A DNA stretch of 35,900 nt from Thiomargarita sp. (GTDB lineage Bacteria > Pseudomonadota > Gammaproteobacteria > Beggiatoales > Beggiatoaceae). Every line of letters starts with the position of its first letter. Position 1 is the first letter of the stretch. Made by a program: the position numbers and the translations under genes. The DNA lies in the NCBI GenBank assembly GCA_020726335.1, contig DYSU01000024.1:1-35900 (forward strand), written 5' to 3'. The notes beneath the pieces were generated by a model. It worked only from the letters and a program-made list of their open reading frames with translations. It had not been told where the DNA came from and made no database searches. Below, piece after piece: positions 1 through 35,900 of the stretch.

Positions 1-31
1 AAAGAAGGGGAATAACTAAAGTCTTGGGCGG

Positions 32-421
32 TCATTCGGTTTTTGGCCGAATAGACAACAAACGAATGGGTCTCCCCCACATTTTTTCCGTCATTTCTTT
101 TTCAACGAATTGTGCCACCACCTCAATTTCTAAACCACTGCGTCGATATTCATTGGGCAAATCCAGCGGCAAATATTTTTCACCGTAATGGCTGAGGATG
201 CCATAAAAACCGCCTTCCAATTCCTCAACATAAATCACAATGCCCGTGAAATGAAACACATTTTTAACAGGTGACAAGGGAAGTTTAATGGCAGGCAAGG
301 TGAGGCTGTCAACAGGCGGCAACGCAGGCAAGGTTATCGGGGCTTGCGGGCTGACGCTTTTTAAGCCGTCCGCCAACACAGCCATGCTGAACAACAACAG
401 CATAATGAAAACTGTTTTCAT
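32..421 (-). CDS. Small secreted protein of unknown function
   Basis: The 129-residue product starts with a clear signal peptide (MKTVFIMLLLFSMAVLA), then a proline-rich linker at about residues 20-50. A compact C-terminal domain carries the pattern FTGIVIYVEELEGGFYGI, then YLPLDLP, then MWGRPIRLLSI. The G-(F/W)-x-GI and MWG-(T/R)-P signatures resemble small beta-barrel (OB-like) secreted proteins that bear no enzyme motif; this is my family impression only. I place the start at the ATG at 421, where the signal peptide begins. An in-frame GTG at 430 overlaps the TGA of the upstream deaminase (GTGA), so either start implies translational coupling. It is the last visible gene of the purD-mtaD unit. 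No function is assigned. Confidence 0.6.
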   Translation of the reverse strand: MKTVFIMLLLFSMAVLADGLKSVSPQAPITLPALPPVDSLTLPAIKLPLSPVKNVFHFTGIVIYVEELEGGFYGILSHYGEKYLPLDLPNEYRRSGLEIEVVAQFVEKEMTEKMWGRPIRLLSIRPKTE

Positions 422-32501: not shown

Positions 32502-35090
32502 ATGATGAACATGGAGAAACTCACCAGCCAATTTCAACAGGCTTTGGCACAAGCACAAAGTTTGGCCGTTGGCCAAGACCACCCCCATATTGAAGCCGTA
32601 CATGTGTTGCTGGCCTTGCTCAACCAACAAGGCGGCTTGACCCGCCAAGTGCTGTTGCAAGCAGGCATCAACATGAATGCGTTGGTCAATGAATTACAAA
32701 AGATATTCAACAACTTACCAAAAGTCACAGGCGAACAAAGCCAAATCAATGTGTCGCCTGAATTGGGGCGGTTGCTGAATTTGACGGATAAATACGCCCA
32801 ACAGCACCATGATCAATTCATTTCCAGCGAATGGTTTATTCTCGCATCGTTAAAAGACAAAAACGGCTGTGGTCAAGCCTTGCGCGATGCGGGTGCGGAT
32901 GACAAGAACCTGAAGGCGGCGGTGGATAAAATTCGTGGTGGGCAAGCGGTCAACAACGCCAATGCCGAACAACAACGCCAAGCGTTGGCGCGTTACACCA
33001 TTGATTTAACCGCCCAAGCCGAATCAGGCAAATTGGACCCCGTGATTGGGCGCGATGATGAAATTCGCCGTTTGGTGCAAGTGCTACAGCGGCGCACCAA
33101 AAACAACCCCGTGTTGATTGGTGAAGCAGGTACCGGAAAAACGGCCATCGTTGAAGGGTTGGCGCAACGCATTATCAACGGCGAAGTGCCTGAAGGCTTA
33201 AAAAACAAACGCTTGCTGGCATTGGACATGGGCGCGTTGATTGCGGGGGCAAAATTTCGCGGCGAATTTGAAGAACGTCTCAAAGCAGTGTTGAATGATT
33301 TGGCCAAACAAGAAGGGCAAATCATTTTGTTCATTGACGAACTGCACACCATGGTCGGTGCAGGCAAAGCCGAAGGCGCAATGGATGCGGGCAATATGCT
33401 CAAACCCGCGTTGGCACGCGGTGAATTGCATTGCGTGGGCGCGACCACCTTGGATGAATACCGCAAATATGTGGAAAAAGATGCGGCCTTGGAACGGCGG
33501 TTTCAAAAAGTGTTGGTGGAAGAACCCAACGAAACCGACACCATCGCCATTTTACGCGGCTTGAAAGAGCGTTATGAAGTGCATCATGGGGTGGACATCA
33601 CCGACCCTGCGATTGTCGCCGCCGCCACCTTGTCGCAACGCTACATCACCGACCGCCAATTGCCCGACAAAGCCATTGATTTAATTGATGAAGCCGCCAG
33701 TCGCATTCGCATGGAAATCGATTCCAAACCCGAGCGCATGGACAAACTCGACCGCCGTTTGATTCAACTGAAAATTGAACGCGAAGCTTTGAAAAAAGAA
33801 AAAGACAGCTTGTCCAAACAACGGCTTTCGGAACTCAATGATAATATTCATGTTTTAGAAAAAGACTACGCTGATTTAGCCGAAATTTGGAAAGCGGAAA
33901 AAGCCATGGTCGAAGGCAGTACGGCGGTCAAAGAAGAACTGGAAAAAGCCAAGCAAGCGATGGAAACCGCACGCCGTGCGGGCGATTTGGGCAAAATGTC
34001 AGAACTGCAATACGGCGTGATTCCCAGTTTGGAAAAGAAACTACAAACCGCCAACCAACAAGACCCCGCCGCCAAAATGCAATTGTTGCGCAACACCGTG
34101 ACCGAAGAAGAAATTGCCGAAGTGGTGTCGAATTGGACAGGCATTCCCGTCAGTAAAATGTTGGCCAGTGAGCGCGAAAAATTACTGCAAATGGAAGCCG
34201 CATTGCACCGACAAGTGATTGGTCAAGATGAGGCGATTCAATCGGTGGCCCATGCCATTCGCCGTTCACGCGCAGGGCTGGCTGACCCGATGCGTCCCAA
34301 CGGCTCATTTTTGTTCATGGGGCCGACGGGCGTGGGCAAAACCGAACTGACCAAAGCCTTGGCTAACTTTTTATTCGATACGGAAGATGCGATTGTGCGC
34401 ATTGACATGTCCGAATTTATGGAAAAACATTCGGTATCGCGCTTGATTGGCGCGCCCCCCGGCTATGTCGGTTATGAAGAAGGCGGCTATTTAACCGAAA
34501 ACGTGCGACGCAAACCGTATTCAGTGGTCTTGTTGGATGAAGTGGAAAAAGCCCATTCTGAAGTGTTCAACGTGTTGTTGCAAGTCTTGGATGACGGGCG
34601 TTTAACCGACGGTCAAGGCCGCACCGTGGATTTTCGCAACACCGTGATTATCATGACTTCAAATTTGGGTTCGCAACTGATTCAAACCATGGCGGGCGAA
34701 GAAAATTATCACACCATGAAAGCCGCGTTGATGGAGATTGTGACCCAGCATTTTCGCCCAGAATTTATCAATCGGATTGATGATGTGGTGGTGTTTCATC
34801 CGCTGTTGCCCACACAAATTCATGCCATCACTAAAATTCAATTGGCACGCTTGCAACAACGGTTAAGCCAACAACATTTGAATTTAGACGTGAGTGACGC
34901 GGCGATTGAACACATTGCCAACGCAGGTTTTGACCCTGTCTACGGCGCACGACCTTTGAAACGTGCGATTCAACAAATGTTGGAAAATCCGTTGGCACAA
35001 ACCATCTTAAATGGAGAATATCAGGCAGGCGATACTGTTCACGTTGATTGGACAGGAACACAGAGCAATTTAGTCATTGATATCAAATAA
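32502..35090 (+). CDS. clpB: ATP-dependent disaggregase ClpB
   Basis: Hexameric AAA+ chaperone that works with DnaK to rescue aggregated proteins. The 862 residues comprise the N-domain (about 1-145), first AAA domain with Walker A GEAGTGKT (207-214) and [19 protein letters not shown], the long coiled-coil middle domain (about 410-530) that separates ClpB from ClpA, and the second AAA domain with [27 protein letters not shown] and [11 protein letters not shown] near the end. No ClpP loop is expected or seen. GAGGA precedes the start; ATGs at 32502, 32505 and 32511 are all usable. A heat-shock-like promoter lies just upstream. Confidence 0.98.
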
Positions 35091-35133
35091 ATATGCCATC
35101 TACTTGCATTAGATAACAATTAGGAAACAACCC

Positions 35134-35900
35134 ATGAGTCAAATATCAACAACAGCATTGGCTAAAATATACCATCTTTCTTCAAAAGAGTTATTTGCCC
35201 GCCTTTTAGAAATAGGATACATTATTAAGCAAGATAATAGTTGGTCTTTAACTGAACTTGGTATTAAAAAGGGAGGATCAATTAAAGAATCAACTCAATA
35301 TGGTCAATATATTGTCTGGCCAATCGATGTTGATCTAAGTAAAGAACAAAAAAATACAGAGCTTATTACATCAACTGTTATCGGAAAGAATTTTGACTTA
35401 TCGGCAAATAAGATTAATTTCATCCTATCGGAATTGGGTTGGGTACAAAAAAGCTTAAAAGGTTGGGCAGTCACTGAACAAGGAAAAAAACAAGGCGGTG
35501 TTCAATCAGAAGATAAAAAATCAGGTATTCCCTATGTTAGATGGCCTGAATCAATTATAGATTCAAAATCATTAAATGAGACAATAGGTCATGTTAAAGG
35601 AGTTTATAACTCTCCTCTTATAGAAACAATCAAGACCACCAATGAAGAATCTGTAGAGTTCAGAGAAAAATTCGAGGCTAAACATCGAAGTGCTGATGGT
35701 CATATGGTTCGCTCAAAAGCAGAAATGTTAATTGATAATTGGCTTTATATGGCTGAGATTGTCCATGCTTACGAAAGAAAACTACCCATAGAAGAAGATG
35801 TTTATTGTGATTTTTATATTCCAATAGGAAAAGTATATATTGAATACTGGGGTTATGAACATGATCCAAAATACTTGGCAAGAAAGAAAAAGAAAATCGA
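35134..35900 (+). CDS. Partial AT-rich gene: tandem DNA-binding-like repeats plus PD-(D/E)XK-like nuclease domain
   Basis: The gene runs off the window; 255 codons are visible. AGGAA at 35122-35126 precedes the ATG. Residues 6-63 and 79-138 are two copies of one domain: an N-terminal helical part (KELFARLLEIGYI; NKINFILSELGWV), then WSLTELGIKKGG / WAVTEQGKKQGG, and a closing YIVWP / YVRWP. This looks like a winged-helix or KilA-like unit. From about residue 190, RSKAEMLIDNWL, YCDFYIP, VYIEYWGYE and LARKKKKI follow the order of a PD-(D/E)XK nuclease: E197, D226, E237 and a lysine cluster at 251-254. AT content and codon use (ATA, AGA, TCA, CTA) differ sharply from its neighbours, suggesting recent acquisition. 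Function unknown. Confidence 0.7.
   Translation, partial: MSQISTTALAKIYHLSSKELFARLLEIGYIIKQDNSWSLTELGIKKGGSIKESTQYGQYIVWPIDVDLSKEQKNTELITSTVIGKNFDLSANKINFILSELGWVQKSLKGWAVTEQGKKQGGVQSEDKKSGIPYVRWPESIIDSKSLNETIGHVKGVYNSPLIETIKTTNEESVEFREKFEAKHRSADGHMVRSKAEMLIDNWLYMAEIVHAYERKLPIEEDVYCDFYIPIGKVYIEYWGYEHDPKYLARKKKKI

What the first reader, a model, noticed from the sequence alone, without database searches (positions are those of the whole stretch)
35134..35900. AT-rich boundary gene with duplicated domain and nuclease-like end
Composition and codon use change abruptly after clpB. The product joins two tandem copies of a winged-helix/KilA-like unit, each ending in Y-(I/V)-x-WP, to a domain with E197, D226, E237 and a lysine cluster in PD-(D/E)XK order. 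It could be a defence or mobile-element nuclease that reads DNA or RNA by its repeats, and the start of an island whose rest is outside the window.
Basis: partly seen in the sequence, partly recalled or inferred. Interest (0 to 1): 0.6.

Follow-up and report, generated by a model that had tools for sequence, protein, structure and literature searches.

The report
Single-gene phage-defence candidate nuclease (PDC-S69)
The contig ends inside a foreign-looking gene for a DNA-cutting protein (two DNA-reading winged helices plus a nuclease) of a family that is already catalogued, but untested, as a bacterial defence against viruses.

Summary
At 35134-35900 an AT-rich gene (GC 0.33 against 0.48) follows clpB and is cut off by the contig end, about 38 residues short. 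Its product has two tandem winged helices (34% identical, E 2e-11, Pfam ANT/KilAC) and a C-terminal nuclease domain.

The PD-(D/E)XK reading holds. AlphaFold2 of a full-length relative gives a VSR/EDxHD-type nuclease core (best match: homing endonuclease I-Bth0305I, Z 11.1). A distant nuclease domain inside a neighbouring helicase keeps the residues equivalent to E197, E214, D226, E237 and K254.

The family is known: all 69 members scanned match PADLOC's PDC-S69, a defence candidate with no published test in the papers I could search. It is patchy, absent from the phage and viral collections searched, and most copies lack a methyltransferase neighbour. Ten of 28 carrier genomes also carry dam, so a DpnI-like Gm6ATC cutter is unlikely.

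New here: a recurrent neighbour carrying a topoisomerase-type zinc ribbon on another nuclease (NERD, Mrr or helicase IV type), once fused to the gene; and a nuclease domain nearly frozen while the winged helices evolve faster.

An island to the right could not be tested. Ordinary in kind, moderately interesting.

The parts
35134..35900 (+). PDC-S69 family gene, truncated by the contig end (255 of ~293 codons)
35134..35343 (+). winged helix 1 (residues 1-70), KilA-C/ANT like, ends YIVWP
   Evidence: Pfam ANT 2.4e-9; AF2 models of a relative; repeat E 2e-11
35344..35583 (+). winged helix 2 (residues 71-150), ends YVRWP; the more conserved of the two repeats
35584..35676 (+). variable low-confidence linker (residues 151-181)
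   Evidence: pLDDT below 50 at much of the equivalent stretch of L018
35677..35900 (+). VSR/EDxHD-type PD-(D/E)XK nuclease domain, last ~38 residues missing
35722..35724 (+). E197, helix A of the active site
   Evidence: invariant; kept in the UvrD insert
35773..35775 (+). E214, conserved acidic residue (YE)
   Evidence: invariant; kept in the UvrD insert
35809..35811 (+). D226, metal ligand (DFY)
   Evidence: invariant; kept in the UvrD insert
35842..35844 (+). E237, metal ligand (IEYWG)
   Evidence: 99%; E in the UvrD insert, Q in the Vibrio copy
35893..35895 (+). K254, probable catalytic lysine moved to helix B
   Evidence: 96% K; aligns with WKR of the UvrD insert; role inferred
35122..35125 (+). 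AGGA ribosome-binding site
   Evidence: sequence
32502..35090 (+). clpB, ordinary core gene upstream, same strand, 43 bases before the gene (context, not part of the family)

Best explanation
It is a horizontally acquired, probably stand-alone DNA endonuclease of the PDC-S69 family that serves as an innate, restriction-like defence. Two tandem KilA-C-like winged helices read the DNA target. A VSR/EDxHD-type PD-(D/E)XK domain (E197, E214, D226, E237, K254 with a metal ion) cuts or nicks the bound DNA. Since no methyltransferase goes with it, self-harm must be avoided by the target itself (a modified or structured DNA of invaders, or a long rare site read by two winged helices) or by a partner, such as the Zn-ribbon nuclease or helicase found next to it in some genomes. 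Shown by sequence and comparison: the gene, its domains, fold prediction, active-site conservation, patchy spread, recurrent partners. Inferred: catalysis, DNA as substrate, defence role, how self is spared.
For: PADLOC PDC-S69 full-length match, E 3.9e-96, and 69 of 69 relatives. PDCs were named by 'guilt-by-embedding' in defence loci (PMC12988326 citing Payne et al. 2024). AF2 model (pLDDT 80.9) with wH-wH-nuclease order. Nuclease core: I-Bth0305I Z 11.1 over 91 residues, VSR Z 9-10, TnsA Z 9. Five active-site residues kept in a distant homologue, the UvrD insert. Nuclease domain dN/dS about 0.01-0.09, winged helices 0.04-0.44. Neighbours in some loci: PDC-S41, HsdM/HsdS, SoFic, HNH, Mrr-type nucleases, integrases. 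Patchy: 6 of 369 genomes of the class and 13 of 57 relatives, some matches weak or partial. Gene GC below the flanks in 80% of 77 loci.
Against: No activity has been measured. Many neighbours are ordinary genes, and defence enrichment was not tested against a control. The gene tree largely follows genus and family (11 phylum changes, least possible 7, shuffled mean 26), and the nuclease domain is more conserved than I would expect of a defence gene, which would also fit a housekeeping or repair role. pTM is low (0.41), so the domain arrangement is unknown.
Confidence: 0.55

Rival explanations
1. A host DNA-repair or branched-DNA nuclease (VSR or junction-resolvase like) that works with a helicase IV type protein or other Zn-ribbon nuclease, not a defence system.
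For: Fold close to VSR; PHROG 'Holliday junction resolvase' 1.2e-5 over the nuclease domain of L018; operon with a helicase IV type protein in Methylococcaceae, gaps 34-58 bases; strong purifying selection and mostly vertical inheritance within genera.
Against: Very patchy distribution; no SOS-box excess upstream, 3 of 78 against 5% at random; presence beside R-M, SoFic and PDC-S41 genes in some loci; the faster-changing winged helices suggest target diversification.
Confidence: 0.25
2. A modification-dependent (type IV) restriction enzyme in which the winged helices sense a modified base, as in DpnI and the wH-nuclease fusions. This is a more specific version of the best explanation and overlaps with it.
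For: wH plus PD-(D/E)XK architecture has proven 6mA-dependent precedents (PMC11037411); methyltransferase neighbours are rare.
Against: Dam is co-resident in 10 of 28 carrier genomes, which makes Gm6ATC untenable as target in those hosts; the wH matches ANT/KilAC and, weakly, MerR-like folds. Other modified bases are not excluded.
Confidence: 0.25
3. A selfish homing-type or phage-borne nuclease.
For: Best fold match is a homing endonuclease; winged helices related to phage antirepressor C-terminal domains.
Against: No hit in 50,697 phage records, none in the IMG/VR pattern scan, stable chromosomal neighbourhoods within some genera.
Confidence: 0.05
4. A sequence-specific DNA-binding regulator whose nuclease domain is no longer active.
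For: Photobacterium plasmid homologues have lost E197 and E237.
Against: The window gene and about 80 relatives keep the active-site residues at 96-100%, and the nuclease domain is the more constrained half.
Confidence: 0.05

Closest known systems
PADLOC PDC-S69 (PDLC05067), phage defence candidate, single gene
   Same: Full-length homology, E 3.9e-96; same order and length
   Different: The window copy is cut by the contig end; otherwise a member
PADLOC PDC-S68 and HEAT_CxxC_PD-DEXK
   Same: Related C-terminal nuclease (window E 5e-8 to 1e-9; relatives down to 1e-15)
   Different: Other N-terminal parts; PDC-S68 is about 1,200 residues
I-Bth0305I (EDxHD homing endonuclease), VSR endonuclease, TnsA
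   Same: Nuclease fold (Z 9-11)
   Different: Only 11-22% identity over the nuclease part; no tandem KilA-C winged helices in the matched stretch; not found in phages here
DpnI and wH-nuclease fusion type IV enzymes (Helbrecht et al. 2024, PMC11037411)
   Same: Winged helix joined to a nuclease, no regular methyltransferase partner
   Different: Two wH before the nuclease, matched by ANT/KilAC; coexists with Dam
Phage antirepressor Ant / KilA-C domain (PF03374, phrog_63, phrog_9329)
   Same: Winged-helix repeat homologous (2.4e-9; 1.3e-11 for phrog_9329)
   Different: Only the C-terminal part of the antirepressor is matched; here it is joined to a nuclease
Helicase IV/UvrD with inserted PD-(D/E)XK domain and Zn ribbons (operon partner in Methylococcaceae)
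   Same: Homologous nuclease domain with the same five catalytic positions
   Different: Helicase protein of ~980 residues

Membership tests
PDC-S69 (PADLOC) | Full-length profile match PDLC05067 | tested here: met
   Window 1-254 to profile 1-251 of 289, E 3.9e-96; 69 of 69 relatives
PDC-S69 (PADLOC) | Embedded in or next to known defence systems | tested here: inconclusive
   True for some relatives; the window's downstream side is missing
PDC-S69 (PADLOC) | Protects cells from phage | not testable with these tools
   No publication naming it in the held library
PD-(D/E)XK nucleases, VSR/EDxHD branch | alpha-beta-beta-beta-alpha-beta core | tested here: met
   AF2 model of a full-length relative; Z 11.1 to 3r3p, 9-10 to VSR
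PD-(D/E)XK nucleases, VSR/EDxHD branch | Conserved acidic metal ligands and a lysine | tested here: met
   E197, D226, E237 at 99-100%, K254 at 96%; same positions in the UvrD insert
PD-(D/E)XK nucleases, VSR/EDxHD branch | Metal-dependent DNA cleavage | not testable with these tools
   needs biochemistry
KilA-C/ANT domain | Pfam PF03374 above gathering score | tested here: met
   37.9 bits against 25.3, two stretches; 64 of 69 relatives match at E up to 1
DpnI-like 6mA-dependent wH endonucleases | Requires Gm6ATC, so should be absent from dam+ hosts | tested here: not met
   dam above cut-off in 10 of 28 carriers; none found in the window's own genome
DpnI-like 6mA-dependent wH endonucleases | DpnI-type winged helix | tested here: inconclusive
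   Not among listed fold matches, which excludes nothing
Homing endonucleases (EDxHD) | Found in introns, inteins or phage genomes | tested here: inconclusive
   No phage or viral hits; introns and inteins not searched

The most novel reading that the evidence does not exclude
PDC-S69 is the sensor-cutter of a modular two-nuclease immune device. Its KilA-C winged helices, shared with phage antirepressors, recognise an invader feature, and it acts with an interchangeable Zn-ribbon PD-(D/E)XK partner (NERD, Mrr or helicase IV type), sometimes fused to it.
Probability: 0.2. Interest if true: 0.65.

Novelty: new member of a known kind. Interest (0 to 1): 0.38.

Why it matters
PDC-S69 is one of many defence candidates with no mechanism. 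This work gives a testable active site (E197, E214, D226, E237, K254), argues against a Dam-methylation reader, and points to recurrent Zn-ribbon nuclease partners that could be co-expressed in a first assay.

Tried and rejected
Finding the missing end: full profile and tail peptide against the own genome gave nothing beyond the window. SOS control: no LexA-like box excess. DpnI-like target: disfavoured by dam co-residence. Phage or homing origin: no hits in phage or viral collections; the viral scan used only two exact peptide patterns, so diverged copies could be missed. Sequence search of solved structures: nothing, or only weak chance-like hits. wH-only fold search: MerR/RacA-like winged helices at Z about 6, too weak to name a family; DpnI not among the listed rows. 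Literature: no paper naming PDC-S69. A Zn-ribbon partner in the window's own genome: no NERD match, and the only Zn ribbons found are three in one 782-residue frame, probably topA. Defence enrichment of neighbours was not tested against a control set.

Full report
The sequence. The gene begins at ATG 35134, 43 bases after clpB on the same strand, behind AGGA. It is open to the last base of contig C64, so 255 of about 293 residues are present. Its GC (0.329) lies 4.1 sd below equal-length stretches of the window and its GC3 is 0.22 against 0.54 for clpB. The missing tail is not elsewhere in the assembly. The rest of the window looks like ordinary core genes by inspection of the translated ORFs.

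What the protein is. PADLOC calls it PDC-S69 over its whole length, E 3.9e-96. Eighty loci at 50-74% identity were fetched from several phyla, and all 69 members scanned match the same model. The PDC candidates were named because they sit inside other defence systems ('guilt-by-embedding', PMC12988326). No paper naming PDC-S69 was found in the held library.

Domains. The two N-terminal repeats are homologous (34%, E 2e-11), match Pfam ANT/KilAC and phage antirepressor families, and fold as winged helices with weak resemblance to MerR/RacA-type DNA binders. Repeat number varies: the Nostoc copy has a wH2-like unit plus nuclease, G003 has wH1 plus nuclease, and G030 has another N-terminus plus wH2 and nuclease. 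The C-terminal domain folds as a PD-(D/E)XK nuclease closest to I-Bth0305I (Z 11.1, 91 residues, rmsd 2.4), 3hrl, VSR and TnsA. The model is of the relative L018, 72% identical, because the window copy is truncated.

Active site. E197, E214, D226 and E237 are 99-100% conserved and K254 96%. A helicase IV/UvrD type protein encoded just upstream in Methylococcaceae carries an inserted domain that matches the nuclease profile (E about 1e-7) and keeps the same five positions. This makes them the likely active site, with the lysine on helix B. The Vibrio copy has Q at 237, and Photobacterium plasmid copies have lost 197 and 237.

Evolution. In close pairs the nuclease domain has dN/dS of about 0.01-0.09 and the winged-helix half 0.04-0.44; in nearly every pair that could be computed the winged helices change faster. 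The family is patchy: 13 of 57 relatives, some weak or partial, and 6 of 369 genomes of the class. The gene tree groups mostly by genus and family, with some cross-phylum mixing (11 phylum changes, minimum 7, shuffled 26). It is absent from the phage records and from a two-pattern viral scan, and present on a few plasmid-classed replicons.

Neighbours. Surroundings are mixed. Defence-type genes occur beside some copies: PDC-S41, SoFic, Type I R-M, HNH. One theme recurs: a neighbour carrying a topoisomerase-type C4 zinc ribbon on a nuclease: NERD type (seven loci, several phyla), Mrr type (L060, L075, and fused in frame in L020), or helicase IV type with its own PD-(D/E)XK insert (six Methylococcaceae loci, gaps 34-58 bases, and a UvrD-helicase gene in the same place on plasmid MEALZ_p). 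By regex the ribbon occurs in 10 of 149 genes at distance 1, 2 of 136 at distance 2 and 1 of 814 at distance 3 or more (Fisher p 6e-8, or 7e-5 with Methylococcaceae counted once). The pattern was noticed first and tested afterwards, gene calling was crude, and relatedness is only partly corrected. The window's own genome shows no such partner in the assembled part.

How it probably works. Tandem winged helices bind DNA and the nuclease cuts or nicks it. A lone nuclease without methyltransferase must spare the host. A DpnI-like Gm6ATC target is untenable in the 10 of 28 carriers that hold dam; the precedent for winged-helix 6mA readers is PMC11037411. Other modified bases, special structures, rare sites or partner control remain. 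A repair role is the main rival, since the fold is VSR-like and inheritance within genera is stable. No SOS box supports it, and the patchiness and defence neighbours speak for defence.

Verdict. The partner association and the frozen nuclease domain are the parts worth following.

Noticed in passing
L020:1-1383: In Candidatus Venteria ishoeyi the PDC-S69 gene is in frame with an upstream Mrr-type nuclease plus zinc ribbon (460-residue open frame, 5' end off the contig).
   Followed up: partly
L047:6955-9936; L063, L057, L066, L067, L052; L097:4997-7936: Helicase IV/UvrD type protein with an inserted PD-(D/E)XK domain homologous to PDC-S69's and C-terminal zinc ribbons, 34-58 bases upstream in Methylococcaceae (on L097 only the annotation was read).
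   Followed up: partly
L019, L021, L036, L081, L085, L092, L094: NERD-domain protein with N-terminal hydrophobic stretch and (mostly) a zinc ribbon next to PDC-S69 in several phyla, in varying orientation.
   Followed up: partly
L100:7977-8858: Photobacterium plasmid homologue with degenerate active site (E197 and E237 equivalents lost), possibly a DNA-binding protein without nuclease activity.
   Followed up: no
L009:1099-2139: G030 homologue in which winged helix 1 is replaced by an unrelated N-terminus of about 135 residues.
   Followed up: no
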